Positions 28,205-46,970 of a stretch of DNA of 64,000 nucleotides are shown piece after piece. This DNA is from Blastocatellia bacterium (lineage in GTDB: Bacteria; Acidobacteriota; Blastocatellia; Chloracidobacteriales; JADJPF01). The DNA is taken from positions 62,001 to 126,000 of the forward strand of contig JANWYG010000007.1 in assembly GCA_025057015.1 (NCBI GenBank), written 5' to 3'. Every line of letters starts with the position of its first letter. Within the stretch, counting starts at the first letter, position 1. The position numbers were made by a program, and so were the translations under genes. A model generated the notes under the pieces. That model was not told the origin of the DNA. It ran no database searches and saw only the letters and a list, made by a program, of their open reading frames with translations.

Positions 28205-30340
28205 TTAAGGCCTGTACGGAGCTGCAAGGTACTGAGCTATGACAGCCTGCGCACCATCATAGTCATCACCTGTTTGTGCCGCCTTATTGTATTCAGCTAC
28301 GGCACGGCTACGGTTGCCTAGCGCGTCATAACACTGACCACGTCGAATAAGCGACCAAACCTCCACCCAACGTGGTCGCAAGTCTAACTCTAACGCCTCG
28401 GCAAAAGTATCCAGTGCCTTCTGGTAATTTTTCTGCTCGAAGTAAAGAAGCCCTAAGTTGTACCAAGCCCAAGAGCTGTAGCGGTAGAGCTTTATCGCTT
28501 GCTGAAACTGCTCTTCAGCTTCAGGAAACTCTTCGCGTCGAAAATGTTCTATACCTCGCCTCACTATTGTTGAAACTCGTATCTCATCGGAAATCTTCAG
28601 CAGTTTATTGTCTGGATCGACTATGACATCCTTTGGAAAGCCATTGACCAGCACATTAAAATCAGCGCTTTCTCCATCCATATCTAAGGTGATACGTTCT
28701 GAACCACCTTCATATACCACCTCTAAATCCACCGGCATACGAAATGACTCACTTTGTTGACTAAGAGTACCACGTATTCGATAACCACCAGACCTCGTCT
28801 TAAGTATTTGATAATCAGCATTAAACTCCGGTACGCCCGTAGAATCTACCCACTGGCCAAAAAAATACCGTAGATCGCTACCGTACACCTTGGAAGCCAT
28901 AGCTTCAAAATCGGCTATAGTAGCATGTTTGTTCCGGTACTGCTCGTAAAAGCTTCTGAGTAGCTGCTGAAATTTCTCCTCACCTATTATTAACCGCAGC
29001 ATTCGATAGACAAAAGCGCCTTTATAGAAAACTATCGAGCGATACGCATCCGATTGATCATCTAAGGTTGCAGGAGCACGCTTAATAGAAGCTTGTTGTT
29101 CAAAACCAAGCGCTCGTTCCATATATCCACGCAATTGCTCCTTAAAGACCGCCTCCGGTAGCAAGGTCTCTAGCAGCATCATCGCTGAATACTGTGCCAA
29201 TCCTTGTGACAACCATGCTTCATCAAACGACTTGAGTATCACGGCCTGCCCCCACCACTGGTAGGCAACTTCGCGAGAGATCACTTCGCTTAGTTCAGGC
29301 TCACTCTTCAGCAAATATGTCTTCTCAGCTAGAAGCGTTATGCCAGCTGCAGTATAGAAATCTAACGATTCATTGTCTATTTCTACGAGATAAAGGCGGT
29401 CTCCAAAAGCATACTCACCGAAGCGCTCGACATAAAAACCAAGCGCTCGCGTAGCGACTTCCAAGATTTTGCCAACTATGGCATCATTGCCCGGCTTACG
29501 ATAGAACTCTACCATTACATTCCCAATGGTCGCTTTCTCTACTGTATAACGTCCGAAAGCAAACGTTCCGGGCAACACTGCCTTATCGCTCACAAACTTG
29601 CTTAGAATAAGCTTAGTACCTGGCTGACTTTCAGTAACTACCGTTGAAGTAAAAACTGGTTGTTCAGGAACAGAAAATAGATTTCTGGTTAAGCGCTTCG
29701 CCGATCCTTTGGTCGTTGACTTCTTCTTTGGTGTTTTAGCAGGTGTCTTTGCAGGTGGAGTCTCGGTAGGCACTGCAATAACAGGCGGGCTATACTCGCT
29801 TACTTGCAAGCTACCGAAGCCAATAGCCCTATAGCCTTCCGAGGTTATAAAGGCGATTTCATATGTAGCGGTATCAGAAGCATAGCCGTGGAAAGGAAAC
29901 CACCTGGCTGCATAAGTGAGATATCCGTTTTCAGGACCTATGTACGCTAAACGCTTGTTAGAAAGTACGCCTCCTTCAGGAGATGCAAGCTTGCCTTCAT
30001 AGCTAAATTCGAGGGAAAGTTCTTGTCCTGCTGTAACAAACTCTCCAAAATCTACCCGTACATTCAGAGCTTCAAGCGTGTCCTGTACAAACTGTAGCTC
30101 TCTATCTCCAAGCTTCACTTTAGAGATCTTGAGTGAACCGTTCATCTCAAATACAACTGATCGAGCCGCAGTGAGCATTCGGAAAGTGACTGTGGTAGTT
30201 GCAGACAGCAAGTTACTTTCAGGAGACAGTTCAGCTGTTATCCGGTAGTGCAAAACATCCAGCATATCCTGCTGCTCAGCAGGCACTCGCAAAACGCCAA
30301 AGCCTAGCAGCACGCAGAAAAATAAAGGCAAAAATCGCAT
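28205..30340 (-). CDS. M1-aminopeptidase-fold protein lacking zinc ligands, with C-terminal TPRs
   Basis: 711 residues: signal peptide (1-22), M1-like beta domain, a Pro/Lys/Thr-rich insert (about 192-216), a thermolysin-like catalytic domain and TPR repeats (about 600-700, YRYSSWAWYNLGLLYFEQ). In active M1 enzymes HExxH and a Glu 19 residues later bind zinc. Here the aligned residues are Arg356-Glu-Val-Ala-Tyr360 and Gln379 (AWLSQGLAQY), so all three ligands are replaced, while the flanking QWWGQ, the aligned Glu357 and the downstream FYKGAFV helix remain. The usual GxMEN exopeptidase motif is also absent. It is probably a non-catalytic binding protein. The reading frame is intact, so it is not a pseudogene. 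Confidence 0.87.
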   Translation of the reverse strand: MRFLPLFFCVLLGFGVLRVPAEQQDMLDVLHYRITAELSPESNLLSATTTVTFRMLTAARSVVFEMNGSLKISKVKLGDRELQFVQDTLEALNVRVDFGEFVTAGQELSLEFSYEGKLASPEGGVLSNKRLAYIGPENGYLTYAARWFPFHGYASDTATYEIAFITSEGYRAIGFGSLQVSEYSPPVIAVPTETPPAKTPAKTPKKKSTTKGSAKRLTRNLFSVPEQPVFTSTVVTESQPGTKLILSKFVSDKAVLPGTFAFGRYTVEKATIGNVMVEFYRKPGNDAIVGKILEVATRALGFYVERFGEYAFGDRLYLVEIDNESLDFYTAAGITLLAEKTYLLKSEPELSEVISREVAYQWWGQAVILKSFDEAWLSQGLAQYSAMMLLETLLPEAVFKEQLRGYMERALGFEQQASIKRAPATLDDQSDAYRSIVFYKGAFVYRMLRLIIGEEKFQQLLRSFYEQYRNKHATIADFEAMASKVYGSDLRYFFGQWVDSTGVPEFNADYQILKTRSGGYRIRGTLSQQSESFRMPVDLEVVYEGGSERITLDMDGESADFNVLVNGFPKDVIVDPDNKLLKISDEIRVSTIVRRGIEHFRREEFPEAEEQFQQAIKLYRYSSWAWYNLGLLYFEQKNYQKALDTFAEALELDLRPRWVEVWSLIRRGQCYDALGNRSRAVAEYNKAAQTGDDYDGAQAVIAQYLAAPYRP

Positions 30341-30966: not shown

Positions 30967-31749
30967 ATGAAGCAACTTATTCTGTTGGTTACCTTTTGTA
31001 TGCTTATCCTTTGCTGCAAAACACAACAAGTTCCAGATACCAAAGTTCAAGCTAAAAGATTTTCTTGGGAAGACGTAGACAAAGATGGCTTACCAGACGG
31101 TCTACAGCTTCGAGGTAAGGACCGAGAGAACTTTCTCAAGTGGGTCTGCTTACTGGCAGAATATCAGTTTTATAAACTCAGTCCGCGATGGCAACCCGAG
31201 CAGCGCGATTGTGCAGGCCTCATTCGCTTCGCAATCCGCGAAGCACTAAGACGACATACTAAGAAGTGGCTATATGATATAGGTGCAGACCCATTGCTTG
31301 CTACAGCAGCACCCGATGACCCAGGTCTAGAACTAGAAAAATTGCCCTTAGGAGAAAAAATCTTCCGCACAAAACCTAACCACTTCCAAATGAAAGATCT
31401 ACATGACGGTACGCTGTGCGAATTTGCTGACGCTAGAACCTTACAAGCATATAACTGCGTATTTGTCGGACGCGACGCAACTAGTGCTCGATCCGGCGAC
31501 CTCATCTTTTACTACGACTCATCAGCTATTCCTTCTAGATACCACGTCATGCTGTTTTTAGGACGTCCACACTGGGAAGATGACGGGCACAGCGACTGGG
31601 TAGTTTACCACACAGGGGAAGGTAGCCGCGGTATGGTAAAGAAAGTTAGACTTGCCGAACTAGCACAACACCCAGATAGGCGCTGGCATCCTGTCAAAAA
31701 TAATCCTTGCTTCCTAGGCTTCTTTAGATTGAAAATCGCAAAAGGATAA
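30967..31749 (+). CDS. DUF1175-family lipoprotein, NlpC/P60-like cysteine hydrolase fold
   Basis: 260 residues. The N-terminus is a signal peptide ending LILCCK, a probable lipoprotein site. An acidic EF-hand-like loop follows (DVDKDGLPDG, about residues 36-45). The core resembles NlpC/P60 peptidases: Cys82 in DCAGLIRF, SGDLIFYY, and His193 in YHVMLFLGR. This suggests a peptidoglycan amidase or peptidase, though the family is formally of unknown function. In E. coli the DUF1175 protein YfaT is likewise encoded beside the alpha-2-macroglobulin YfaS, and the same pairing holds here with a 4-nt gap. Confidence 0.75.
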   Translation: MKQLILLVTFCMLILCCKTQQVPDTKVQAKRFSWEDVDKDGLPDGLQLRGKDRENFLKWVCLLAEYQFYKLSPRWQPEQRDCAGLIRFAIREALRRHTKKWLYDIGADPLLATAAPDDPGLELEKLPLGEKIFRTKPNHFQMKDLHDGTLCEFADARTLQAYNCVFVGRDATSARSGDLIFYYDSSAIPSRYHVMLFLGRPHWEDDGHSDWVVYHTGEGSRGMVKKVRLAELAQHPDRRWHPVKNNPCFLGFFRLKIAKG

Positions 31750-31753
31750 AACC

Positions 31754-34700
31754 ATGCGCTACTTACGTATACCTGCCTCCTTCTGCATTATGCTTCTAGC
31801 TGGCGCTCTGACAGTTCTGCTACTAGGTCGAGCACAAGATACCTCTCTTCCAGCACCAGAAACTACGCTGGTACCAGAAGGCGGAAAGATGTTTGCCCTT
31901 TTCTCCAGCCGAACATTCGCAAGCAACGAGTACCCGCGGTTCACCTTGAGTTATAGAGACGTAGATAAATTAGACTTTAGGGTATACAAGATCTCAGATC
32001 CAATCGAGTTCTTCACCAAGCTTCGCAATCTACATCAATCAGGTGAAGAAGATACTCAATCACTCTCACGTCCCCGCTCAGCTCTGGAACGTTTCTCTTA
32101 CTGGAAGTTTACAACGCTTAATACAATAAAGAATTTCATTCGTCGGCAAGTAAACAAAAAGGCGCGTAGCCTCGTAAACAAGACCTTCGGAGACGAGTAT
32201 GTGCTAGCGCGTAGACGTCCCCTAAACCATGCTGATCTACAGAAGATCCCTCTACTTAATGACTACGGCCTAGTAGAAAGCTGGCGAGAAATCCTGCAAG
32301 CAATCACACAAACTAACTATTTGACGATACCCCTTTCCAAAAAAGAACCTGGTGTCTACTTAGTAGAAGCTGCCTGCGATGACTTGCGAGCATACACCCT
32401 GGTATTTGTAACAGACCTGGTAGTTCTCAGCAAAAATTGGAATAGAAAGCTTATCATTTACGTAATCAATAGATACTCTGGTAAACCTATAGAAAATGCC
32501 ACGTTGCAACTGATAACTCCCAAGCGAGACTCGCCATTACGTAGCGTTTTGCTAAGTGGCACAAGCAGTGCCGACGGTAGCTGGCGTGTTGATCTACCTC
32601 AAGATTTTCAAGGCGAAGATTCACTACTACTTGTATCTTCAGGTAAAGATTTCGCCGCTGTAGATGTAGGACGCTCGCTTTACATTTGGGGTGTATCATC
32701 CTATCAACCTCAGTCAGCTTTCTACACCTACACCGATCGACCGGTATACCGTCCGGGACAAACCGTCTACTTCAAGTCAATACTAAGGCAACTGACCGAA
32801 AAAGGGCCTGCTTCAGTTACAGGTCTTGCTGACATAACAGTCACAGACGCTGATGGAAATACCTTCTACCAAACAAGCTTGCCGGTTAGCGATACTGGCA
32901 CGATAAGCGGCAGCTTCACACTAGCAAAGGATGCTGTGCTGGGCAGCTATAACATCAACGTCCAGCTCTCCGGAATGACCGGCTATTACTATTTTCAAGT
33001 CGAAGAGTACAAAAAACCCGAGTATACAGTATCTATATTCTTCCCACAGCGACGCGTCCTGGCCGGAGAAAAAGTAAATGCCGTCATACAAGCAAGGTAC
33101 TACTTTGGAGCACCCGTCGCTCAGGCAGCCGTAGAGTACCGCGTCTACCGCGAGCCATACTATGCCCCTTTTAGCTCAGATGACCCACTGTTACAGTTTA
33201 TACAAGAAGAGCCTCAAGAATATGACTTTCGCTACTACAGCGAACTTGTCACCGAAGGTAAGGGTACACTGGATAAAGAAGGCCAATTAAGAATCAATTT
33301 CGACACAAAACAGACAGTAACAAATCCTGAAGCGGAAGATTTCGGCCAAGAATACAAGTATCGTATCGAAGCAGTAGTGACAGATCTCGCACGCAGAGAC
33401 ATACGTAAAAGCGATTCAATTCCTGCTGTAAATGGCCGATTCGCTCTTCAAACTGCTACCGATAGGTATGTCTACAAACCCAACGAAGAAGCTGAGGTCG
33501 AAGTAACTGCCATAGACCACGACGGTAAGCCAGTAGCTGCTGACTTCAAGTTAATCGCACTACAAGTCAGTTGGCAGAAATCTGCAGACTCTGTCCTTAG
33601 ACAGGTTAAGCAGATAAGCGAGGTCTCCGGCAGAACGGACGCTCATGGAACTACCAAACGACGTATAAAATTACCTGCCGAAGGTGAGATAGAACTTGTA
33701 GCCATAGCCGAAGATTCAAATAGAAAGATCATATCAAATAGATCTCTCATCTGGACAACCTCTGATAACATCTACGACGAATATTACTTTTCCGAGATCA
33801 AGATACTTTCAGATAGAAAATTCTACCGACCTGGTGAAGAAGCAAACATATTACTGCTTCTTCCTGACTCAAAGGCGCATTTGTTTATCTCACTCGAAGG
33901 CCACCGACTGCTACGCGATTGGCAACTCTCTGCAGAAGGTCGCACGGCAAAGCTCAAGATACGTCTAGATAATACATTACTGCCAGAAGGCGTTCCGAAC
34001 GTTTGGCTCAATGTTGCTTATGTAAAAGAAGGCAGAATGATCAGCGGTATGAAGTCTCTAGACGCACCGCCGCTAGAAAAGCTACTCAAAGTAAACATAG
34101 AGACTGATAAGCCAGTATATCAACCCGGAGAAACAGCAGTCTATAAGATCACAACAACAGACCTAGTGGGCGAACCTGTTTCAGCAGAAGTAAGCTTTGG
34201 ATTAGTAGATGAAGCAATCTACGCTATTCAATCAGAGTACTTGCAAAACATAGCAAGCTTCTTCTATAGCCGTATAACTAGTAACGTGCACACTGGATTT
34301 TGCAATGAGTATGATTTTTCTGGTTACAGCAGCAAAGAAGCGTGGAAGCTGGCAGCAGAAAGAAACAACTTAAAACAACGCAAGCCTTTTGCAGCACTTA
34401 AAACACAGCCCAGAATAGATATCAGAAAAAACTTTAAAGACACCGCCTTTTGGTCAGCTAACGTGCAAACCGACGATCAGGGACGCGCAGAGATAAGTGT
34501 TGACCTGCCTGATAACTTGACTACCTGGCGTGCAACAGCTAGAGCCGTAACTTCGGATACCAAAGTAGGCTCCGCAGTTCAAAAAGTCATAGTGAGAAAA
34601 GATCTCTTAGTCAGACTGGCTACTCCTCGATTTTTGACCGAAGGTGACGAAGCTACTATCTCAGCCATAGTACATAACTACCTGAAAACACCTCAAAAAG

Positions 34701-36517
34701 TAACCCTTTCCATACAAACAAGCGGCGTAACGATGACTGAAAGCGCCCGCCTGCTTGAACATAACATAGAGCCTAATGGCCGACAGAGAGTTGATTGGAA
34801 AGTTAAGGCAGACAATGTCACTAACGCAACATTCAAGGTGATTGCCAGCTCTGCAGAAGCCTCGGATGGAGTTGAGCTAACGATACCAGTACTACCGCAT
34901 GGCATACGTATAGGGCATGCCGAATCAGCAGTACTTACTGAAGCAAACTCAACCGCAGAGCTAAAAACCAACATAGGGCAAAATGCTTCGCCTAGCACGA
35001 TACAAATTCGCGTTGACCTTGCTCCGTCAGTTACTGGAGTCGCTCTTGCTGCACTTGACTATCTAACAAGCTACCCTTACGGTTGTGTTGAACAGACTAT
35101 GTCAAGCTTTCTGCCTAACATAGTTGTAGCAAGAGCGCTACGCGCAAACGTCACAAAAGCTGATGAAGCTTCGCTAGACGATAAAGTGAAAAAAGGACTA
35201 GAAAGGCTCTATGATTTTCAACACAAAGACGGCAGTTGGGGTTGGTGGAAAACTGATCCAGCCGACCTTTACATGACAGCATACGTAGTAATAGGGCTCA
35301 CAGAGGCTTCCCGTGCAGGCTACTCAGTTGACCAAGCTGTAATTAAGCGCGCCAGGGACTACATTAAGTCAGAGTTAGACAGTAGCCGCAGCTGGACTGA
35401 TCCCAGAGGTCTAGACGAACGCGTTTATCTGCTGTACGCACTAGCCGTCTCAGGCAGTGAATCAGCTTCACGGCTGAGCCCTTTGCTCAAAGCTGAAAGT
35501 ATGTTACAGCCGTTTAGTAGAGCATTGCTAGCGTTGGCTCTTCTTGAAACTGGCGAACGCGAGAAAGCTATAGAACTTGCGCAAAAGATAGAAGCTACAG
35601 CAACAGGCAATAACCAAGAATCCTACTGGGAGACAATCTCAAAGTTTCCTATAGGCGAAGAGGACCTCTCAGTAGAAGCAACCGCTCTCTCTGTCAAGGT
35701 TCTGGCAAGGCTATTACCCCAAAGCCCAGTATTGGTAAAAGCAGCTCGATGGCTAGTTAACCACCGTCCGAACGGCTATTACTGGCACAGTACCCGCCAG
35801 ACAGCAGCTGCTATCGATGCGCTTGTTGACTATGCCCAAGTTAGCGGTGAGTTAGAAGCAGACTACGATTGGGAAGTGTATATAAATAATCAACAGGTAG
35901 GCACAGGTCACTTCTCCTCTACTGACGCTACCGCTGGCAAGATAATAAGGATAATGGCTGAAAAACCCGTTATAGGCACAAACACCGTCAGAGTAGTAAA
36001 AACAGGACCAGGCACACTAATTGCTTCGCTCAGCTCGGTCTATTTTACTAAGGAAACCGAAGCTAAGCCTACTGGTTCAACAACGCTATCAATTAACCGT
36101 GAATACTTCCTGCTTGACCTAACTACGGATGATCAAGGTCAACCGGTGTTACGCCCCAAGCCACTCAAAGGCGAGCTCAGCGGCGGAGAACTGATCCTAG
36201 TTAGGATAACACTGCAAGGCAAGCCAGCAAGATACTTGATTATAGAAGATCCATTCCCCGCTGGCATGGAACCGTTCACAGACAATGAACCGCCTCCAGG
36301 CGAACTACCACAGATAGAGAGTTTCTATGATCGTAGAGAGTTCAGAGATGACCGCGTCGTATGGTTCTTGACAACTTTTCGAGAAACAACTACCTGGCAA
36401 TACGTCCTTCGATCACAGATACCAGGCAAATTCATAGCTGCACCAGCTCGTGCTGAAAGGATGTACCAACCTCAAATACGCACAAACAGTGCCAGTGCTA
36501 GTTTCACAATAAAATAA
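31754..36517 (+). CDS. Bacterial alpha-2-macroglobulin with thioester
   Basis: 1587 residues, the size expected for the family. N-terminal hydrophobic export signal (about residues 7-26, ending GRAQD, no clear lipobox). A series of MG beta-sandwich domains follows: MG2-like TDRPVYRPGQTVYFKS, and later ETDKPVYQPGETAVYKI. Then comes the alpha-2-macroglobulin core (FWSANVQTDDQGRAEISVDLPD and TTWRATARAVTSDTKVGS) and the thioester domain with Cys1111 in YPYGCVEQT. After bait cleavage these proteins trap proteases covalently through the Cys-Gln thioester, protecting the periplasm. Its stop overlaps the next ATG by one base. It is the central gene of the operon 30967-39830. Confidence 0.95.
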   Translation: MRYLRIPASFCIMLLAGALTVLLLGRAQDTSLPAPETTLVPEGGKMFALFSSRTFASNEYPRFTLSYRDVDKLDFRVYKISDPIEFFTKLRNLHQSGEEDTQSLSRPRSALERFSYWKFTTLNTIKNFIRRQVNKKARSLVNKTFGDEYVLARRRPLNHADLQKIPLLNDYGLVESWREILQAITQTNYLTIPLSKKEPGVYLVEAACDDLRAYTLVFVTDLVVLSKNWNRKLIIYVINRYSGKPIENATLQLITPKRDSPLRSVLLSGTSSADGSWRVDLPQDFQGEDSLLLVSSGKDFAAVDVGRSLYIWGVSSYQPQSAFYTYTDRPVYRPGQTVYFKSILRQLTEKGPASVTGLADITVTDADGNTFYQTSLPVSDTGTISGSFTLAKDAVLGSYNINVQLSGMTGYYYFQVEEYKKPEYTVSIFFPQRRVLAGEKVNAVIQARYYFGAPVAQAAVEYRVYREPYYAPFSSDDPLLQFIQEEPQEYDFRYYSELVTEGKGTLDKEGQLRINFDTKQTVTNPEAEDFGQEYKYRIEAVVTDLARRDIRKSDSIPAVNGRFALQTATDRYVYKPNEEAEVEVTAIDHDGKPVAADFKLIALQVSWQKSADSVLRQVKQISEVSGRTDAHGTTKRRIKLPAEGEIELVAIAEDSNRKIISNRSLIWTTSDNIYDEYYFSEIKILSDRKFYRPGEEANILLLLPDSKAHLFISLEGHRLLRDWQLSAEGRTAKLKIRLDNTLLPEGVPNVWLNVAYVKEGRMISGMKSLDAPPLEKLLKVNIETDKPVYQPGETAVYKITTTDLVGEPVSAEVSFGLVDEAIYAIQSEYLQNIASFFYSRITSNVHTGFCNEYDFSGYSSKEAWKLAAERNNLKQRKPFAALKTQPRIDIRKNFKDTAFWSANVQTDDQGRAEISVDLPDNLTTWRATARAVTSDTKVGSAVQKVIVRKDLLVRLATPRFLTEGDEATISAIVHNYLKTPQKVTLSIQTSGVTMTESARLLEHNIEPNGRQRVDWKVKADNVTNATFKVIASSAEASDGVELTIPVLPHGIRIGHAESAVLTEANSTAELKTNIGQNASPSTIQIRVDLAPSVTGVALAALDYLTSYPYGCVEQTMSSFLPNIVVARALRANVTKADEASLDDKVKKGLERLYDFQHKDGSWGWWKTDPADLYMTAYVVIGLTEASRAGYSVDQAVIKRARDYIKSELDSSRSWTDPRGLDERVYLLYALAVSGSESASRLSPLLKAESMLQPFSRALLALALLETGEREKAIELAQKIEATATGNNQESYWETISKFPIGEEDLSVEATALSVKVLARLLPQSPVLVKAARWLVNHRPNGYYWHSTRQTAAAIDALVDYAQVSGELEADYDWEVYINNQQVGTGHFSSTDATAGKIIRIMAEKPVIGTNTVRVVKTGPGTLIASLSSVYFTKETEAKPTGSTTLSINREYFLLDLTTDDQGQPVLRPKPLKGELSGGELILVRITLQGKPARYLIIEDPFPAGMEPFTDNEPPPGELPQIESFYDRREFRDDRVVWFLTTFRETTTWQYVLRSQIPGKFIAAPARAERMYQPQIRTNSASASFTIK

Positions 36518-37317
36518 TGGTGAGATTTATGAAACAGCAGATAACAACTTTTCTACGAGGCCTGCCACTAATAGTCTTATACGGCATCTGGACAGCTATC
36601 TTTATCCCCTTATGCTACTGGCTACTTTCTATACCAGAAGCTGACTTCACTACGATAGTCATATCCGCCTTGATCTTTACTGCCTGCATGCTCTCCTTCT
36701 TCTCCTTGCAAGGTACAACGATCTACTGGCTAGGATGTGCAGCAGAAGGCCAGGCAAAGTTAAATAGTGTATTCCTAAAAGGAATGCTCAGAAGCCTCTT
36801 CGTCGATGGAGCGAAAGTAGCGTTGCTAGCTGTTCTAATGGCACCTACCTTTTGGCTAGCGATGACGCTCTTTCCGGTCACATCTCCAACACCTAACGCA
36901 GACGCTTTACTAAAGCAACCTTTGACAGGTCAAGTGAAAGTAGAAGAAAAGGCAAGTTCTCGAACACAGTATCCTATAGAGATTGTCCGCAGCGCTCTAT
37001 TGTGGTTCGCTTTGCCGCTTCTTCTTCTACGGTTATGGAGCGAAGCTGTATTAAACGGTCTAGACCGAGCCTTTAAATCTCTACTAGGTAGTGCTTGGAA
37101 TGCCTGGCACCCTAGCATGCTACTTTGGGCTATTCTGCCACTACTACTCGTGCTGGGAGCCCCCGTGCTTTTGTTTTCCATCGAGCTAAAGGTAGAAAAT
37201 GCCTATCTAGCATTGCTGCTATTTACGATTAAGCTGGCAACAGCATGGCTACTGCTAGTACTTGGATGGTTATTTGCGGTAACGCTTACTGTCACTTCAG
37301 TCAAAACCCAATTCTGA
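36517..37317 (+). CDS. Multi-pass membrane protein, unknown family
   Basis: 266 residues with about six hydrophobic helices (roughly 13-37, 45-67, 95-118, 153-175, 200-222 and 230-255) and a polar loop near 120-150. No recognised motif. The ATG at 36517 shares a base with the alpha-2-macroglobulin stop. An ATG at 36529 with GGTGAG upstream is an alternative. Its 3' end overlaps the following fusion gene by 73 nt, an unusually long overlap, so the four genes from 30967 are almost certainly expressed together. Confidence 0.75.
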   Translation: MVRFMKQQITTFLRGLPLIVLYGIWTAIFIPLCYWLLSIPEADFTTIVISALIFTACMLSFFSLQGTTIYWLGCAAEGQAKLNSVFLKGMLRSLFVDGAKVALLAVLMAPTFWLAMTLFPVTSPTPNADALLKQPLTGQVKVEEKASSRTQYPIEIVRSALLWFALPLLLLRLWSEAVLNGLDRAFKSLLGSAWNAWHPSMLLWAILPLLLVLGAPVLLFSIELKVENAYLALLLFTIKLATAWLLLVLGWLFAVTLTVTSVKTQF

Positions 37318-39830
37318 CGCTCCTTCTAGCGCTGCTGCTCGCGCTTTGCTGTAAGTTACCAGACGAACCGCCGGCTACCGCACATCAGAAAAACTCCGTT
37401 TCGCAAGATAACCTACAAGCTATCGTTGCTAAAGCTATGGATAACCGTAGCGGAGCCGTGGTAGTCATGGATGCCGACGGCAACATTCTGAGTCTTTATA
37501 ATAAAGACCTAGCTGACAGGGATTTTCCCCTTGGGTCTATAGTCAAGCCGTTCATCGCAAAATCCATAACTGAAAGAAAGTACCTTTGTCGGGGAAAGTA
37601 TGGTCGCATACTATGTACGCATCCTAAGCAAACCGCACCAATCAGCTTGGCGCAAGCAATAGCAATTTCTTGTAACGGCTATTTTGCATCGCTTGCTGAA
37701 GAACTTGACTTGCGATCAATTGAACAATCATTACGTAAATACGGCTTCGGTAACGGCCACCTGTTGCCAGGAAAACAAAAGGAAGATTTCTTCATCGGTG
37801 AAGGCGGAACCGTAACCCTGTCTCCAATTGCGTTGACTAGAGCAATGCTTACGCTGGCTTTAAATCATCCTCCAGCTACCTATACCAATCACGATCTAGA
37901 CCTGCCTCAAGAAATACTCGAAGGCCTGCGAGGTTGCATAGAATATGGCACTGCAGCAAACAACGATTGGAAGTCACTCCCGCAAGATTTAATGGTTATC
38001 GGTAAAACCGGCTCTCCTACTATCCCCGATGACGTAATCACACACGGCTGGTTTAGCGCAGTAGTATGCAGGAAAGGCACAGCAGACTTTGCCGTCACTG
38101 TCTTTCTGAAAGCTGGACGCGGTAGCGAAGCTGCTGCTATAGCCGCAGACGTAATTACTAAGTTCATTCAGTCAGCCTCTGTCACTGCAGAAAGCAACGA
38201 CGAAATCAGTGTGGCCGTCTTTTCCTCGCTCCAACCTAAGAGCGCAAACTTTAGTGCCAAGCAGCTAAAACTAAGAGACTTTCAAAACAGATGCTTAGCT
38301 ACGACAACTCAGGTTACCTTATCCGTAGTAGGAGCTGACAAGTTAGTTGCCCGCATTGCAGAAGGTGTAGAAATTCCAGCCGTACAGCTACACCTGGAAG
38401 CAGAGCATCTGCGGATAAGGATCGAAGGCGCTGCAGAACGTTTCTACTCTACAGGCATGTTTACTCTTCGGCTAGACAGAGAAAGCCGCTCGATACTCAT
38501 AATCGAGCACACCAAGTTGGAAAGCTATGTAGCAAGTGTCGTTTCGACTGAGATACCAGAAGAAACTGAACCAGAAGCGCTCAAGGCACAAGCCGTAGTG
38601 GCAAGAAGTTATGCTGTTGCCTCTCCACCCAGACACAAAGGATACCGTTTCTGTGACTCTACGCACTGCCAAAGATATGTAGGTCAAGCAGCTGTAGCAG
38701 CAATGAAAGCAGCAAAAGAGACCGCCGGTGAATACCTAATCGATCAAGGCAATAGACCTGTACAAGCTCTCTATCATGCCTGTTGTGGAGGAAAGCTTCT
38801 TACAGCTAACCGGGTATGGAAGGCAAGTAGTGAACCTTCTAAACTATGCGGCTACTGTAAAGGCCATCCTTGGCAACGCAAGATACCAAGAAGTCAGCTA
38901 CTGTCAATACTCGGCAGGCACCTAGGTATAGAAGTAAAAAACACGCAACTAGTGCTAGACGAAAACAATGCCTGTTTGCGTCTAGAACTCTCCACTTCGG
39001 AAGGGAAACGAATCTTGCCCTGCGGTATCTTACTAGAACTCTTAGCTGACTGCCCTTCTCTACCCACAGAACTACGTTTGATTAACGAAACGGTCTTAAT
39101 AGCCGGTAAAGGCCTTGGTCATTGCGTTGGACTGTGTCAACACGCTGCACACACCATGGCCAAACAAGGTCGAAGTTACAGCGAGATACTCAGCAACTTT
39201 CTGCCCGATCTACGCCTAAGTAGGGCTATTCTTACTAGACCTGTCGGTAACTTACAAGAAAAATCCACTGTATATGAAATAGAAAATCTGTCGATAAGTT
39301 TCTTTGCACCAAACACGATAGTAGAAGCAAAAGAAGTAGCTTCGATAGCGCTACGCGCAGCTGCACAATTAGGCAAGAATGCCCCAGGACTGCGCTTTGA
39401 GTTCGTGCTACACGGCAGTACAGCCAGCTTCTGCTCTGTTACAGGACAAGGTGGTGACGTAGCAGCAGTCACTGTAGGCACTAAGATTCATCTTCAGCCG
39501 CTACACCTCTGCCGACTAGGGTCACTGCGCGAACTGGTTCGGCACGAGATGGCTCATGTTGCTATAGACCATGTCGGCGGAAAATCCGTAGCACGCTGGC
39601 TCCATGAAGGTTATGCAACAATCTTTGCAGGCGAAAAGTATACCTCCGTCAGACCAACTGCCGATCTGGAATGCAGATTGGTACGCGCAAGAAGTAACGA
39701 AGAGCGAAGACAATTGTACGCTGAAGCAGCAACCAAAGTAGCTGAACTGCTTGCAAAAACAGGTGAAAGAGCTCTCTGGCAAGCTCTTGCTGCAGGACGC
39801 TTTCGTTCCCAAGGCTGCAACTCTAACTAA
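37245..39830 (+). CDS. PBP-like transpeptidase / SpoIID / HExxH zinc-peptidase fusion
   Basis: 861 residues. A hydrophobic signal ends LALCCK (residues 33-37), a likely lipoprotein site. Domain 1 (about 50-310) shows penicillin-binding-protein motifs in order: Ser98-I-V-Lys101 (SxxK), Ser142-C-Asn144 (SxN) and Lys254-Thr-Gly256 (KTG). Domain 2 (about 360-665) is SpoIID/LytB: YVASVVSTEIPEE, ALKAQAVVARSYAV and the closing GKGLGHCVGLCQHAAH. Domain 3 (about 675-861) is a gluzincin-type peptidase with His767-Glu-Met-Ala-His771 and probable third ligand Glu788 in LHEGYA. The protein could cross-link, cut glycan and cut protein. Start uncertain (ATG 37245, or ATG 37266), neither with a good Shine-Dalgarno. 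Confidence 0.82.
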   Translation: MATASTWMVICGNAYCHFSQNPILTLLLALLLALCCKLPDEPPATAHQKNSVSQDNLQAIVAKAMDNRSGAVVVMDADGNILSLYNKDLADRDFPLGSIVKPFIAKSITERKYLCRGKYGRILCTHPKQTAPISLAQAIAISCNGYFASLAEELDLRSIEQSLRKYGFGNGHLLPGKQKEDFFIGEGGTVTLSPIALTRAMLTLALNHPPATYTNHDLDLPQEILEGLRGCIEYGTAANNDWKSLPQDLMVIGKTGSPTIPDDVITHGWFSAVVCRKGTADFAVTVFLKAGRGSEAAAIAADVITKFIQSASVTAESNDEISVAVFSSLQPKSANFSAKQLKLRDFQNRCLATTTQVTLSVVGADKLVARIAEGVEIPAVQLHLEAEHLRIRIEGAAERFYSTGMFTLRLDRESRSILIIEHTKLESYVASVVSTEIPEETEPEALKAQAVVARSYAVASPPRHKGYRFCDSTHCQRYVGQAAVAAMKAAKETAGEYLIDQGNRPVQALYHACCGGKLLTANRVWKASSEPSKLCGYCKGHPWQRKIPRSQLLSILGRHLGIEVKNTQLVLDENNACLRLELSTSEGKRILPCGILLELLADCPSLPTELRLINETVLIAGKGLGHCVGLCQHAAHTMAKQGRSYSEILSNFLPDLRLSRAILTRPVGNLQEKSTVYEIENLSISFFAPNTIVEAKEVASIALRAAAQLGKNAPGLRFEFVLHGSTASFCSVTGQGGDVAAVTVGTKIHLQPLHLCRLGSLRELVRHEMAHVAIDHVGGKSVARWLHEGYATIFAGEKYTSVRPTADLECRLVRARSNEERRQLYAEAATKVAELLAKTGERALWQALAAGRFRSQGCNSN

Positions 39831-39838
39831 GTAGATCG

Positions 39839-39867
39839 TTGACAGACACATAATATTCGCTTATTTT
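39839..39867 (+). promoter_or_regulatory. Promoter of lexA
   Basis: TTGACA (39839-39844), 17-nt spacer, TATTTT (39862-39867). The predicted start is near 39874, followed by AAGGAG at 39884-39889, 9 nt before the ATG. I could not pick out a convincing LexA box overlapping it. Confidence 0.6.
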
Positions 39868-39898: not shown

Positions 39899-40504
39899 AT
39901 GTCTGTGCTATCAGAAAAGCAGCAACAAGTCTATGAGTTCATCGTCGAGTTTGTACGAACCAGAGGACATTCACCCAAGATAAAGGATATATCAAAGCGA
40001 TTTGGATTCTCCTCCCCGGCAACAGTACACAAGTACCTAGTAGCCTTAGAGAAAGCGGGCTACATCGTCAGAGGTAAGAGAAATGCCCTAGTCAAGCTGC
40101 TTTCTTCACCAACTACTTTTGCGGAGTCTGTAGAAGTACCTTTGCTCGGAAGGATAGCTGCCGGTAAACCTATTGATGAAAGCCTAAACGGCAAGTTCGT
40201 TGCTATTCCAAAAGAGCTACTTGGTTGCGGGCAGACTTACGCGCTAAAAGTAGTAGGTGACTCCATGATAGACGAGCATATTACTGACGGTGACCTCATA
40301 ATAGTTGAACATAAAGAAACCGCCAGCAACGGTGAAACAATAGTAGCCATCGTCGAAAATCTCGGAGCTACGGTTAAAAAATTCTATTTCGACAAAGGTA
40401 AGGTGAGACTACAACCGGCAAATCCAAACTACAAACCGCTCTTGCTAGAACCAGAAAAAGTCCAGGTGCAAGGAAGAGTAATAGGAGTAATAAGAAAGTA
40501 CTGA
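39899..40504 (+). CDS. lexA: LexA repressor
   Basis: SOS-response repressor with latent self-cleaving protease. 201 residues. The N-terminal winged helix covers residues 1-68 (IKDISKRFGFSSPATVHKYL). The cleavage site is Ala88-Gly89 in GRIAAGKP, the catalytic Ser122 is in GDSMID and the catalytic Lys160 is in ATVKKFY, all intact. The recognition helix differs from the E. coli type, so its operator should differ too. It is followed by the inverted repeat at 40511-40620. Confidence 0.96.
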   Translation: MSVLSEKQQQVYEFIVEFVRTRGHSPKIKDISKRFGFSSPATVHKYLVALEKAGYIVRGKRNALVKLLSSPTTFAESVEVPLLGRIAAGKPIDESLNGKFVAIPKELLGCGQTYALKVVGDSMIDEHITDGDLIIVEHKETASNGETIVAIVENLGATVKKFYFDKGKVRLQPANPNYKPLLLEPEKVQVQGRVIGVIRKY

Positions 40505-42355: not shown

Positions 42356-43711
42356 ATGGGGTTACTAGACTTTTTCAAAAAAGCGAAAACCGAACGCAAA
42401 GTCGTCTTGATAGGATTAGATGGCACACCGTACACGCTTTTAAAGCAATACATAGAAGATGGTACTATGCCCAATCTGGCACGGATTACAAACGATTGCC
42501 TGCTAAAACAGATGGATGTATCGATACCAGAAGTGTCATCCACCTCGTGGACATGCTTCTACACGGGCTGTAATCCGGCGCAGCACGGCATCTTCGGCTT
42601 TCTAGATCTTCAACCTAATTCGTACAAGATTTATTTTCCCAATTCACGCAATGTCAAGATGCCTGCGCTATGGGATATAGTAGGCAACAGCGGTAAGCGC
42701 TCTGTAGTTATCAACGTACCACAAACTTATCCTGCTAAGCAGACAAACGGTGTCCTAATTTCTGGATTCGTAGCTACGGATATAAAGAAAGCGACGTATC
42801 CAGCTGAATTGTTGCCAACACTTTCTGAACTAGGGTATCGCCTTGACCCAGACGCTGCACGTGCTCGTGAATCAAAAGAAGCCTTCATAGAGGACATACT
42901 AGACGTATTTGAGAAGCGTCGCCGTACAATACTGCACCTGTTTGAGCACGAAAAGTGGTCGTTGTTTATTGGTACTGTGACCGAAACTGATCGCCTGCAC
43001 CACTTCATGTGGGATGCGGCCGTCGATCCAAACCACAAATACCACGACGCTTTCAAAGAGTTCTACAGACGAGTCGACAAGCTGCTTGGCGAGGTTTATG
43101 AAAGGTTGGACACAAGCACTACATTTATGATGTGCTCAGATCATGGCTTCACAAAGATCGAGCAACAAGTCTATCTGAATTATTGGCTAAAGTCGAACGG
43201 TTATCTATCTTTCACTTCAGATACTCCGAAGAGCATAGAAGAGATAGGCAGTAACAGTCGCGCTTTTGCGCTAGACCCCACGCGCATATACATTAACCTC
43301 AAGGGAAAGTATCCACAAGGCACAGTAAGCACCGGAGAGTACGAGCGACTAAGAAGCGAGATTGCCGATGGATTACTATCTCTCGAACATAACGGCCAGC
43401 GGATACTGCAACGAGTCTTTATGAAAGAGGAAATCTTTCGAGGGCCGCTGCTAGAACAAGCACCTGATCTAGTAGTGCTATCGAATTATGGGTATGACAT
43501 GAAAGGTGCAACAAACAAACAAGTATTGATGGACACGGAATTGTTTACAGGTATGCACACGCAAGATGACGCACACTTACTCATAGGTCGGCGTGGCACT
43601 GCAAGACCAAGCATCGAGCGTAAGCCGCATATCTGTGATATAGCACCAACGATTCTTAAAGAACTCGACATTGCTGTTCCTCCGGATATGGTAGGTAGGG
43701 CGCTAGTATGA
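42356..43711 (+). CDS. Alkaline-phosphatase-superfamily phosphodiesterase, paralogue 1 (no LGY tail)
   Basis: 451 residues, apparently cytoplasmic (no signal peptide). Type I phosphodiesterase/nucleotide pyrophosphatase fold: first metal Asp in LIGLDGTPY, nucleophile region SSTSWTCFYTG with a Ser at the nucleophile position, TETDRLHH, and the metal-binding CSDHGF. A final His lies in TGMHTQDD. It has a shorter C-terminus than its three neighbours, ending DMVGRALV. GGAGG precedes the ATG. It overlaps the next gene by 4 nt. The substrate may be a phospho- or sulfo-ester; sequence alone does not decide. Confidence 0.88.
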   Translation: MGLLDFFKKAKTERKVVLIGLDGTPYTLLKQYIEDGTMPNLARITNDCLLKQMDVSIPEVSSTSWTCFYTGCNPAQHGIFGFLDLQPNSYKIYFPNSRNVKMPALWDIVGNSGKRSVVINVPQTYPAKQTNGVLISGFVATDIKKATYPAELLPTLSELGYRLDPDAARARESKEAFIEDILDVFEKRRRTILHLFEHEKWSLFIGTVTETDRLHHFMWDAAVDPNHKYHDAFKEFYRRVDKLLGEVYERLDTSTTFMMCSDHGFTKIEQQVYLNYWLKSNGYLSFTSDTPKSIEEIGSNSRAFALDPTRIYINLKGKYPQGTVSTGEYERLRSEIADGLLSLEHNGQRILQRVFMKEEIFRGPLLEQAPDLVVLSNYGYDMKGATNKQVLMDTELFTGMHTQDDAHLLIGRRGTARPSIERKPHICDIAPTILKELDIAVPPDMVGRALV

Positions 43712-45321
43712 AGGCAATAGTTATAGGGTTAGACGGCGCTACATTAGAAGTAATCAAGCAGCTAATCGAACAGGACAAAATGCCTGTATTTGCTAAACTT
43801 ATGCAAGAAGGTGCGCACGGATTGCTACGGTCATCAATTACGCCAAACAGCTTTCCTGGCTGGACGTCGGCAAGCACCGGTACGAGCGAAGGCCGCCATG
43901 GCATATTCACTCCCCTTGTCCGGCGCGAAGATAACTTTTTACTCAAAGCAATGAACAGCTCAGATATACGCACGAAGACGCTCTGGGAACTTTTGTCTGA
44001 GCGTGGTCGGCGCGTTTGTGTAATCAACGATCCTTGCTCGTATCCTCCTATTGCAGTAAACGGTTTGCTCGTCTGCGGGATGCTCTGGCCAGGTGGCGAT
44101 GCTAAGTACACCTATCCCGAATCGCTTGCCTTAGAGCTAGCCCGTATGGGCTATATAGTAGACGTCAATCTGAATGGCAAAGGAAACGAACAGATCGCAG
44201 CAGAATTGATGCACTCGATAGACCGCAGGTTAGAGGCGGTGCTGAAGCTGTCTCAGCAAGATGATTGGGATCTGGTTTGGGCAGTATTTACCGAATCTGA
44301 TAGAGCACAGCATCGACTTTGGGCAGCTTGGGACGATAAGCATCCAAACCACAGTGCTCAACCATCTACGCTGCGCAATGCCATACCCGAAATTTATAGT
44401 AAACTCGATGCTGCAGTAGGTGCCATTATCTCTATTGCGGACAAAGATACAGCCGTGTTCATAGTCTCTGACCACGGCTTCGGTCCCTTTTATGCTTCGT
44501 TCGATGTGCATGCTTGGTTGCTCGCCGAAGGGTACCTAGTCGAGAAAGGACACAAAGCAAAGCTTAAGTCACTACTTAGAAAAGCTGGTATACTTGAGGA
44601 AGCTATAGCTGCATACCGTAAGCTACGTCGTCCTTTCGAAAACCGGATAGAATACGGCACTAAAAAACTCAACTCTCAAGCAGCATTTACTGAAACTTAC
44701 CTCAATCAGGTTGACTGGCAACGTACTGTTGCCTACTACACCTTAGACGGTGGTATAAGGCTCAACCTGCGCGGACGTGAACCACATGGCTGGATAGAGG
44801 AACACCGAGCAGCAGAGCTCAAAGAAGAAATCCGAGCAAAATTACTTGCCCAGCGCTATCCTAATGGCACAGCAATCTTTCGCTACGTTCTCACTCAAGA
44901 AGAAGCTTATGATGGCCCGTACAGCCGATACGCTCCAGATCTCATTCTCTCGGCAGATCATGCCGGCTATAACGGCCCACTCAAAGGCAATCCATTTCTG
45001 AGACCCTGTAACCATAACTCTGGTGAGCACACTCCGTATGGAATACTTTTTGCTTACGGGGCAAAAATCCGCTGTAACACTGTAGTCGAAGGGGCAAAAC
45101 TCATAGATATCGCTCCGACAGTGCTCTACTATTTAGATGAACCGCTTACTATGGAAATGGACGGGCGAGTTCTTACCGAGCTGTTCACACCGGAGTTCAA
45201 TAGAAGCAGACAGATAAAACGCACGGGTAGCTCTTATAGAAATGCTTCAGAAGCTTCTACAGCTACGACTTTTGAAGACGACTCCGTAGCCGAAAAATTG
45301 CGCAGCTTAGGCTACATATAG
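43708..45321 (+). CDS. Alkaline-phosphatase-superfamily phosphodiesterase, paralogue 2
   Basis: 537 residues, no signal peptide. Motifs: VIGLDGATLE, NSFPGWTSASTGTSEGRHGI (Ser at the nucleophile position), FTESDRAQHRLW, VSDHGFGPF and a late His in SGEHTPYG. An internal Lys/Arg-rich helical insert follows the SDHGF motif (about residues 270-325). The C-terminus runs through a Ser/Thr/Asp linker to EKLRSLGYI. Its ATG overlaps the stop of paralogue 1 (ATGA). Confidence 0.88.
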   Translation: MKAIVIGLDGATLEVIKQLIEQDKMPVFAKLMQEGAHGLLRSSITPNSFPGWTSASTGTSEGRHGIFTPLVRREDNFLLKAMNSSDIRTKTLWELLSERGRRVCVINDPCSYPPIAVNGLLVCGMLWPGGDAKYTYPESLALELARMGYIVDVNLNGKGNEQIAAELMHSIDRRLEAVLKLSQQDDWDLVWAVFTESDRAQHRLWAAWDDKHPNHSAQPSTLRNAIPEIYSKLDAAVGAIISIADKDTAVFIVSDHGFGPFYASFDVHAWLLAEGYLVEKGHKAKLKSLLRKAGILEEAIAAYRKLRRPFENRIEYGTKKLNSQAAFTETYLNQVDWQRTVAYYTLDGGIRLNLRGREPHGWIEEHRAAELKEEIRAKLLAQRYPNGTAIFRYVLTQEEAYDGPYSRYAPDLILSADHAGYNGPLKGNPFLRPCNHNSGEHTPYGILFAYGAKIRCNTVVEGAKLIDIAPTVLYYLDEPLTMEMDGRVLTELFTPEFNRSRQIKRTGSSYRNASEASTATTFEDDSVAEKLRSLGYI

Positions 45322-45335
45322 TTGAGGGGGTGTAA

Positions 45336-46955
45336 TTGAAGGCAGCAATAATAGGCCTAGATGGTGCAACTTTTGATGTAATAGAACCACTGATTGCCGA
45401 AGGTCGGCTACCAGTACTTAGGGAGTTGATTCAGAATGGCACAAGTGGTCCGCTACGATCGACATTGCATCCGAACAGCTTTCCAGGTTGGGCAAGTTGC
45501 ACCACAGGTACTTCCGAAGGCATGCATGGCATATTCTCACCTTTTGTCAAACTACCAGGTAAATATGCCTTTCGTGCTATGACCGCCTTAGACATTCGTA
45601 CCAAAACGGTTTGGGAGTTGCTCTCAGAACGGTATCGCTCGCGCCGACAAGGAGCCGTAGGCGTAGTAAACGTGCCGACTACCTATCCACCTATACCGGT
45701 AGAAGGATTTCTCGTAACCGGAATGCTTACACCAACGATGCAGTCGCAGTTCACCTATCCTGCGGAGCTACAGAAAAAACTGCTTACCGCCGTATCAGAC
45801 TACCGAATAGAGCCACGACGCAATACCGACAAACAAAGCAAAGCAGTCGAGTTCCGTAACTGCATGTTGGCGCACTCCCGCGCCGTAGAATACTTGCTTA
45901 AGACTGCCTCCTCACTACCAGACTTCCTTATGGTAGTCTACTCAGTGCTCGATCGGACACAACATGACTTCTGGGAAGATTTCGATCCACAGCATCACAG
46001 ACACGATCCAAAGAGTGCTTTCAAGGATTTTATCCCTCAAATGTACGAACTAATAGACGCATCCGTAGGAAGGTTGCTACAACTACTACCACCAACTACT
46101 ACGGTGCTCATTTGTTCAGACCATGGCTTTTGCGCCTCGCTTTACGAAGTACGAGTAAATGAATGGCTGCGCGCAAACGGCTATCTACGTTACCACAGCG
46201 GCTATACCTTTAAGGTACGCAGTAAGATTTCCTCGCTACGAACTCGACTGCAGGGCAGCCTCTCAAGCCCTTCGAACGGTTGGGATAACGCTCTCGAAAA
46301 GAAGGCTGAGCGAGGTCGAGCTGTTTTTGAAGAGATTGACTGGAAGCATACTCGCGTCTTCTTTGGCCAGGATCGTGGGTTATGGCTAAACATAAAAGGC
46401 CGTGAAGCAGAAGGTATTTGCGAAGCCTCGGATATACCAAAACTGCTCGACGAGTTGCGTGATGGGTTGCTCAAGCTAACTTCACCGATAGATGGATTAC
46501 CAATCTTTGAACAAGTTCTTACCAGAGAAGAAGCCTTCAGCGGTCGCTATGCTTGCTTGCTGCCAGATCTGATACCGATAATCCGCGATCCAAGGTTCGT
46601 ACCACTTGAAGGTAGAAGCAGTAGTGGCGTCATAATTCCCAGCAGCACTACATCAGGAGCACACGCTCCTTATGGGATATTCATTGCCTACGGCGATAGC
46701 ATAAACAGGCGCAAGCGTATCGAAGGTGCGCACCTGCGCGATGTAGCGGCTACAGCTTTGTTTGCCATGAACGAACCTATCACCGAAGATATGGACGGCC
46801 GAGCCTTAATCGAGATCTTCACGTCGGAAGCACTTTCCGCAAGACAACTAGTACGTCAAGGAAGTTCTTATAAGGATAGCTGTGACGATGGCGATCATCA
46901 TGAAGATGATGAAGAGATCCGTGAACGAATGCGAGCATTGGGATATATAGGATAG
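45336..46955 (+). CDS. Alkaline-phosphatase-superfamily phosphodiesterase, paralogue 3
   Basis: 539 residues, TTG start with GAGGGGG upstream. Closest to paralogue 2: IIGLDGATFDV, NSFPGWASCTTGTSEGMHGI, VLDRTQHDFW, CSDHGFC and SGAHAPYG. The C-terminus has a strongly acidic/His stretch (CDDGDHHEDDEE) before RERMRALGYIG. No signal peptide or membrane helix. It probably arose with its neighbours by tandem duplication, though identity between copies is moderate, so the duplication is old. Confidence 0.87.
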   Translation: MKAAIIGLDGATFDVIEPLIAEGRLPVLRELIQNGTSGPLRSTLHPNSFPGWASCTTGTSEGMHGIFSPFVKLPGKYAFRAMTALDIRTKTVWELLSERYRSRRQGAVGVVNVPTTYPPIPVEGFLVTGMLTPTMQSQFTYPAELQKKLLTAVSDYRIEPRRNTDKQSKAVEFRNCMLAHSRAVEYLLKTASSLPDFLMVVYSVLDRTQHDFWEDFDPQHHRHDPKSAFKDFIPQMYELIDASVGRLLQLLPPTTTVLICSDHGFCASLYEVRVNEWLRANGYLRYHSGYTFKVRSKISSLRTRLQGSLSSPSNGWDNALEKKAERGRAVFEEIDWKHTRVFFGQDRGLWLNIKGREAEGICEASDIPKLLDELRDGLLKLTSPIDGLPIFEQVLTREEAFSGRYACLLPDLIPIIRDPRFVPLEGRSSSGVIIPSSTTSGAHAPYGIFIAYGDSINRRKRIEGAHLRDVAATALFAMNEPITEDMDGRALIEIFTSEALSARQLVRQGSSYKDSCDDGDHHEDDEEIRERMRALGYIG

Positions 46956-46970
46956 AAGGGAGAACAGGGC

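What the first reader, a model, noticed from the sequence alone, without database searches (positions are those of the whole stretch)
37245..39830. Three wall-active or proteolytic domains in one protein: PBP-like, SpoIID and HExxH peptidase
Visible in the frame: SxxK (Ser98/Lys101), SxN (Ser142/Asn144) and KTG (254-256) in the first 310 residues; SpoIID signatures between about 420 and 645; and HEMAH (767-771) with a downstream Glu788. Each set of catalytic residues looks intact. I know of no described protein with this order. It would unite a penicillin-binding fold, a glycan-strand lyase and a metallopeptidase in one lipoprotein-like polypeptide.
Basis: partly seen in the sequence, partly recalled or inferred. 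Interest (0 to 1): 0.82.

Follow-up and report, generated by a model that had tools for sequence, protein, structure and literature searches.

The report
Three-enzyme wall protein in macroglobulin operon
One bacterial protein carries a penicillin-binding enzyme, a wall-strand-cutting enzyme and a zinc protease, and it is made together with a bacterial relative of the human immune protein alpha-2-macroglobulin, so it is probably the wall-repair part of a bacterial self-defence set.

Summary
One intact 861-codon frame (37245-39830) holds a class-B-PBP-type transpeptidase domain (Z 28 to PBP2), a SpoIID/LytB domain with catalytic Glu and all four zinc ligands, and a gluzincin domain (model pLDDT 96; nearest solved folds M9/M1 peptidases). 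It is not an assembly join: ten other genomes of its class carry the whole protein, and in 16 aligned homologues (25-34% identity to the window) every catalytic residue of all three domains is invariant. The protein is the last gene of a conserved set: DUF1175 (NlpC/P60-like) - alpha-2-macroglobulin with intact CxEQ thioester - six-helix membrane protein - this protein. That matches E. coli yfaT-yfaS-yfaQ and, by gene order, the Pseudomonas mag operon, which protects against wall-cutting T6SS effectors. In the phylum sample all 19 DUF1175-positive genomes outside one family have the PBP and SpoIID domains, fused or as adjacent genes. No DUF1175-positive genome has PBP1c, which sits beside a macroglobulin in other genomes. 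E. coli YfaQ is probably a shorter, decayed relative with the same order, so the architecture is not without precedent. Best reading: the wall-remodelling enzyme of a macroglobulin defence/repair cassette; the mechanism is inferred.

The parts
30967..31749 (+). DUF1175 protein (YfaT family), NlpC/P60-like, first gene of the set
   Evidence: Pfam DUF1175 1.5e-56, weak NLPC_P60; C82 and H193 invariant in 19 of 19 including E. coli YfaT
31754..36517 (+). Bacterial alpha-2-macroglobulin, 1587 aa, 4 bp after the DUF1175 gene
   Evidence: Pfam MG2, A2M, TED, bMG10
35084..35095 (+). CVEQ thioester motif (residues 1111-1114) of the macroglobulin
   Evidence: motif scan; intact in the homologues' readable macroglobulins, absent in Citrobacter and E. 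coli YfaS
36517..37317 (+). Membrane protein, 266 aa, about six helices, no Pfam family
   Evidence: hydropathy of 14 homologues; homologue in the same slot of related loci
37245..39830 (+). The protein: PBP transpeptidase - SpoIID - gluzincin, 861 aa
37296..37352 (+). Single hydrophobic segment, residues 18-36 (signal or anchor)
   Evidence: hydropathy
37392..38174 (+). PBP transpeptidase domain, residues 50-310
   Evidence: Pfam 5.5e-8; family profile to PDB SpoVD/PBP2 3.9e-30; VIA Z 28.5
37536..37547 (+). SxxK (S98, K101)
   Evidence: invariant in 16 homologues
37668..37676 (+). SxN (S142, N144)
   Evidence: invariant
38004..38012 (+). KTG (254-256)
   Evidence: invariant
38457..39230 (+). 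SpoIID/LytB domain, residues 405-662
   Evidence: TIGR02669 3.3e-41; PDB SpoIID 4rwr 1.1e-8, 5i1t 2.1e-8
38550..38552 (+). E436, counterpart of the SpoIID catalytic Glu (C. difficile E101)
   Evidence: alignment to 4rwr/5i1t; invariant; role of E101 from PMC6934232
38634..38669 (+). Zinc-site residues H464, C470, H474, C475, as in C. difficile SpoIID
   Evidence: all invariant; ligands named in PMC6934232
39267..39827 (+). Gluzincin (Peptidase MA type) domain, residues 675-861
   Evidence: AlphaFold2 pLDDT 96; Foldseek and VIA; Peptidase_MA_2 in 8 of 16 homologues
39543..39557 (+). HEMAH zinc motif (767-771)
   Evidence: H767, E768, H771 invariant
39606..39608 (+). E788, third zinc ligand of gluzincins
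   Evidence: invariant

Best explanation
The protein is the exported wall enzyme of a bacterial macroglobulin cassette (DUF1175 - thioester alpha-2-macroglobulin - membrane protein - this protein), occupying the slot that YfaQ holds in E. coli and, by gene order, MagE holds in Pseudomonas. It is anchored to or released from the inner membrane into the periplasm. Proposed action: when the wall is attacked, the macroglobulin captures intruding proteases through its bait region and thioester. Meanwhile the SpoIID domain trims broken or stripped glycan strands as a lytic transglycosylase, the PBP domain re-crosslinks or trims stem peptides, and the gluzincin domain cuts a protein or peptide, either the intruder, the damaged wall proteins or the macroglobulin itself. 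Shown here: the three domains, strict conservation of all active-site residues, conserved gene neighbourhood, fusion and split forms, and mutual exclusion with the macroglobulin-PBP1c pair. Inferred: enzyme activity, substrates and the defence/repair role.
For: Domains and invariant active sites. Same-strand order DUF1175 - macroglobulin - membrane protein - triple protein in other class members; in four other families the triple gene is convergent next door. In family f15 and in G239 the PBP domain and the SpoIID-gluzincin part are adjacent, overlapping genes, a natural split of the same unit. In 297 sampled genomes of the phylum 37 have DUF1175; all 19 outside family f28 have the PBP and SpoIID domains, 13 fused and 6 split; all 13 genomes with a strong family-specific PBP match are DUF1175-positive. 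PBP1c occurs in 78 of 297 and in none of the 37 (Fisher 5e-6, not corrected for kinship; 0.0015 without f28); it lies beside a macroglobulin in 9 of 11 loci read, so two macroglobulin cassettes, each with a transpeptidase, replace each other. The HExxH motif is intact in 22 of 22 members from cassette loci or genomes and in 4 of 11 PBP-less SpoIID-gluzincin proteins from DUF1175-negative genomes. Published: the mag operon protects against wall-cutting T6SS effectors VgrG3 and Tae1 (PMC12663445); the macroglobulin-PBP1c pair has been proposed as defence plus wall repair (PMC5764988).
Against: No activity is shown for any domain. The published protection phenotype is for magD, in another phylum, whose macroglobulin lacks the thioester; MagE itself was suggested to be cytoplasmic and to affect MagD processing (PMC5764988). 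In the loci where the triple gene is convergent, co-transcription cannot hold. Exclusion with PBP1c may partly reflect kinship. The PBP domain lacks the pedestal domain of class B PBPs, so it may be a carboxypeptidase or a sensor instead.
Confidence: 0.58

Rival explanations
1. The protein mainly matures the macroglobulin: the gluzincin domain processes the macroglobulin or its bait region, and the PBP and SpoIID domains bind peptidoglycan to place the complex at the wall, with little catalysis.
For: Loss of magE lowers MagD and leaves larger MagD forms (PMC5764988). Enterobacterial YfaQ keeps HEYLH but has lost SxN (SCG) and KTG (KTW). HExxH conservation tracks the cassette.
Against: SxxK, SxN, KTG, the SpoIID Glu and the zinc site are all invariant in 16 divergent members, which argues for catalysis in all three domains.
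Confidence: 0.2
2. The PBP domain is a sensor of beta-lactams or wall fragments (BlaR1/OXA-like) that switches on the peptidase, rather than a transpeptidase.
For: Short SxxK-SxN and SxN-KTG spacings (44 and 112 residues); weak hits to OXA and BlaR1 models (0.006-0.03).
Against: The family profile matches SpoVD/PBP2 at 3.9e-30, and the fold aligns to PBP2 at Z 28.5. In f15 the PBP domain is a separate protein, so a direct covalent relay is not needed.
Confidence: 0.1
3. Ordinary growth or developmental wall remodelling, with no defence role; the macroglobulin is a neighbour that helps envelope homeostasis.
For: SpoIID and class B PBPs serve growth and sporulation elsewhere (established knowledge); no defence assay exists in this phylum.
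Against: Absent from most of the phylum (37 of 297 have DUF1175), tied to a macroglobulin and excluded from PBP1c genomes.
Confidence: 0.17
4. Assembly join of separate genes or chance motifs.
For: In f15 the parts really are separate genes.
Against: The whole frame is found intact in ten other genomes of the class and in further families.
Confidence: 0.01

Closest known systems
E. coli YfaQ (DUF2300) and, by gene order, Pseudomonas MagE
   Same: Same place after the macroglobulin in a DUF1175-macroglobulin operon; SpoIID region homologous (Pfam 7e-6; own profile 5e-11 and 2.4e-13; hhalign 89%); colinear GSxWK, two Cys and SCx in the PBP region (Citrobacter 9.1 bits against 3.5 for the best of the shuffles); C-terminal HExxH with a downstream Glu.
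   Different: 549 aa; SCG and KTW replace SxN and KTG, and the SpoIID zinc site is lost; no profile support for the gluzincin fold. The window protein does not match the DUF2300 model. The enterobacterial operon also has DUF2138 and DUF2135 genes and a macroglobulin without thioester.
Type I bacterial macroglobulin with PBP1c
   Same: Thioester macroglobulin beside an exported penicillin-binding enzyme; the same slot in the phylum as judged by mutual exclusion.
   Different: PBP1c is matched by its own BiPBP_C model; the partner here instead adds SpoIID and gluzincin domains, and the operon has DUF1175 and a membrane protein.
SpoIID of Clostridioides difficile
   Same: Catalytic Glu and the C..HC zinc site with a further His.
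   Different: Not a sporulation protein here; fused to two other enzymes.
Class B PBP transpeptidase domains (SpoVD, PBP2)
   Same: Fold and SxxK, SxN, KTG.
   Different: Bare domain of about 250 residues without the N-terminal pedestal.

Membership tests
PBP transpeptidase domain (PF00905, class B type) | Profile match above gathering score | tested here: met
   32.8 bits against 22.1; 16 of 16 homologues
PBP transpeptidase domain (PF00905, class B type) | SxxK, SxN and KTG conserved | tested here: met
   invariant in 16
PBP transpeptidase domain (PF00905, class B type) | N-terminal pedestal/dimerisation domain (a feature of full class B PBPs, not of the domain itself) | tested here: not met
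   domain begins near residue 50, directly after the hydrophobic segment; so it is filed as a transpeptidase-type domain, not as a class B PBP
PBP transpeptidase domain (PF00905, class B type) | Acylation by penicillin, transpeptidation | not testable with these tools
   needs purified protein
SpoIID/LytB lytic transglycosylase | Profile match above curated cut-off | tested here: met
   TIGR02669 142 bits against 83.3; PF08486 78.1 against 23
SpoIID/LytB lytic transglycosylase | Catalytic Glu and zinc ligands | tested here: met
   E436, H464, C470, H474, C475 invariant; roles from PMC6934232
SpoIID/LytB lytic transglycosylase | Cutting of glycan strands | not testable with these tools
   needs an assay
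Gluzincin, Peptidase MA superfamily | HExxH plus downstream Glu | tested here: met
   H767, E768, H771, E788 invariant
Gluzincin, Peptidase MA superfamily | Gluzincin fold | tested here: met
   pLDDT 96 model; best matches gluzincins, Z up to 13.7
Gluzincin, Peptidase MA superfamily | Pfam Peptidase_MA_2 match | tested here: inconclusive
   8 of 16 isolated domains, not the window's own
DUF2300 / YfaQ family | Match to PF10062 above cut-off | tested here: not met
   no hit in P0001; none over cut-off in 39 genomes of relatives
DUF2300 / YfaQ family | Place after the macroglobulin in a DUF1175-macroglobulin operon | tested here: met
   here with a membrane-protein gene in between
Type I bacterial macroglobulin (neighbour gene) | CxEQ thioester motif | tested here: met
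   CVEQ at 1111
Type II (mag/yfa) macroglobulin operon | Macroglobulin without CxEQ | tested here: not met
   thioester motif intact here, absent in YfaS of Citrobacter and E. coli
Type II (mag/yfa) macroglobulin operon | DUF1175 gene just before the macroglobulin | tested here: met

The most novel reading that the evidence does not exclude
A self-contained periplasmic immune and repair machine: a thioester macroglobulin that traps intruding proteases, operating with a single polypeptide that can cut glycan strands, re-crosslink peptides and digest protein, and standing in for the PBP1c-macroglobulin pair; YfaQ/MagE would be its decayed relative, so the unexplained protection of the mag operon against wall-cutting effectors would come from wall repair.
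Probability: 0.3. Interest if true: 0.82.

Novelty: new variant of a known kind. Interest (0 to 1): 0.64.

Why it matters
Bacterial macroglobulin operons are known to protect against wall-cutting T6SS effectors, but how is stated to be unknown (PMC12663445). Here the same operon slot is filled by a protein with three intact active sites, two of them for the cell wall, and the cassette excludes the macroglobulin-PBP1c pair. That gives a direct, testable proposal for what YfaQ/MagE-type partners do, and it links the two published classes of bacterial macroglobulins: a thioester protein (Type I) in a Type II-like gene order.

Tried and rejected
Assembly join: rejected, as the same fusion recurs. 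Filing the protein under DUF2300: rejected, as the model does not match. A profile proof that YfaQ's C-terminus is the same gluzincin domain failed, so only the motif is shared. The single genome-contig scan found only a Myxococcales Peptidase_MA_2 protein beside a TPR protein, and 141 genomes of that phylum had no DUF1175. A paper search found no description of this architecture. The whole-protein model is poor in the SpoIID loops (pTM 0.41), so domain contacts were not interpreted.

Full report
What is in the sequence. The frame 37245-39830 (+) encodes 861 residues without a stop. All motif positions in the finding are correct. Pfam and NCBIfam recover a transpeptidase domain (70-303) and a SpoIID/LytB domain (419-659, 3.3e-41), and PDB SpoIID structures align to residues 420-658. 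The C-terminal 187 residues are missed by Pfam in this protein. A model from 34 homologues has pLDDT 96 and pTM 0.91; its best structural matches are gluzincins, namely M9 collagenases, M1 aminopeptidases and M30 (Foldseek 3.2e-5; VIA Z 13.7, rmsd 3.4, 174 aligned). Eight of 16 homologous domains match Pfam Peptidase_MA_2. The PBP part of the whole-protein model aligns to PBP2 with Z 28.5 over 251 residues, rmsd 2.7; a family profile finds SpoVD at 3.9e-30 and PBP2 at 1.7e-28.

Is it real and constrained? Whole-frame homologues exist in ten other genomes of the class and in further families of the phylum. In 16 aligned proteins at 25-34% identity to the window protein, the invariant columns include S98, K101, S142, N144, K254-G256, E436, H464, C470, H474, C475, H767, E768, H771 and E788. 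E436 is the counterpart of the catalytic Glu of SpoIID, and H464/C470/H474/C475 match the zinc ligands described for the C. difficile enzyme (PMC6934232). The three active sites are therefore each under strict selection. Activity itself is not shown.

The gene set. Upstream, nearly touching, lie a DUF1175 gene (30967-31749), a macroglobulin gene (31754-36517) and a membrane-protein gene (36517-37317), which overlaps the start of our frame by 73 bp. The same order on one strand is found in the other class members that could be read. In families f50, f29, f65 and f62 the triple gene is convergent beside the set. In family f15 (loci L082, L083, L084, L086) the PBP domain and the SpoIID-gluzincin part are two adjacent overlapping genes; G195 and G239 show the same split on another contig than the macroglobulin. 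In family f28 only a SpoIID protein lies near the macroglobulin in the two loci where it was found. The cassette macroglobulins that could be read have CxEQ; the enterobacterial YfaS proteins do not.

Distribution. In 297 genomes sampled evenly from the phylum, DUF1175 occurs in 37. All 19 outside f28 carry the PBP and SpoIID domains, fused (13) or split (6). All 13 genomes with a family-specific PBP match above 180 bits are among the 37. PBP1c (BiPBP_C) occurs in 78 and never together with DUF1175 (0 of 37, Fisher 5e-6, uncorrected for kinship; 0.0015 without f28). PBP1c lies beside a macroglobulin in 9 of 11 loci read. SpoIID-gluzincin proteins without the PBP domain occur in 11 DUF1175-negative genomes and have lost HExxH in 7 of them, whereas 22 of 22 from cassette loci or genomes keep it (in two of the 22 the contig is too short to show DUF1175).

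Known relatives. E. coli has yfaA-yfaT(DUF1175)-yfaS(macroglobulin)-yfaQ(DUF2300)-yfaP, and a Citrobacter plasmid has the same order. YfaQ matches Pfam SpoIID (7.2e-6) and our SpoIID profile (5e-11; Citrobacter 2.4e-13). Its N-terminal part aligns colinearly with the PBP domain at GSLWK, two cysteines and SCG (E 0.0044 in a pairwise profile comparison); the Citrobacter copy scores 9.1 bits against 3.5 for the best of the shuffled decoys, while the E. coli copy (2.6) is not above them. The C-terminal HEYLH...E is shared only as a motif. So YfaQ is probably a shortened, partly decayed relative with the same order, but the DUF2300 model does not match our protein, and I do not file it there.

How it may work. 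The mag operon of Pseudomonas protects against the wall-cutting effectors VgrG3 and Tae1 by an unknown mechanism (PMC12663445), and MagD forms a membrane complex with partners (PMC5764988). That MagE is the YfaQ counterpart rests on gene order only. The best-supported proposal is that this protein is the wall-remodelling enzyme of the cassette: glycan trimming by SpoIID, peptide cross-link repair or trimming by the PBP domain, and proteolysis by the gluzincin domain, alongside a protease-trapping macroglobulin. The domains, their conservation, the neighbourhood and the mutual exclusion are shown; enzyme activity, substrates and role are inferred. The main rival is that it matures or places the macroglobulin, in line with the effect of magE loss on MagD.

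Taxonomy. The two-contig 3.7-Mb genomes in its order suggest Chloracidobacterium relatives, that is class Blastocatellia of Acidobacteriota (inference from genome layout).

Noticed in passing
L141-L150 (PBP1c loci), and 297-genome phylum sample: Two macroglobulin cassettes, one with PBP1c and one with DUF1175 plus PBP/SpoIID domains, never occur in the same genome of the sample (0 of 37 against 78 of 297).
   Followed up: partly
30967-31749 and homologues: DUF1175 keeps an NlpC/P60-like Cys (C82, motif DCAGL) and His (H193) in 19 of 19 proteins including E. coli YfaT, although a classification paper (PMC10318531) calls the family inactive.
   Followed up: partly
L082, L083, L084, L086: PBP domain and SpoIID-gluzincin part encoded as two overlapping adjacent genes, convergent to the macroglobulin set: a natural split of the fusion.
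   Followed up: partly
13643-15925: A second SpoIID protein in the window, with a SPOR domain.
   Followed up: no
42356-48632: Four type I phosphodiesterase/nucleotide pyrophosphatase paralogues in tandem behind an APS kinase gene.
   Followed up: no
39899-40504: A LexA-like repressor gene directly behind the set, with a promoter-like site of its own at 39839-39867.
   Followed up: no
own genome contig C15, near 180727 and 464815: Two further macroglobulin-like long frames (1761 and 1938 codons) in the same genome.
   Followed up: no
Thermotoga maritima control genome: It rings for both DUF1175 and the A2M family, so the set may reach beyond this phylum and Enterobacteria.
   Followed up: no
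28205-30340: A peptidase M1 - TPR protein lies just upstream on the other strand; another gluzincin near the set.
   Followed up: no
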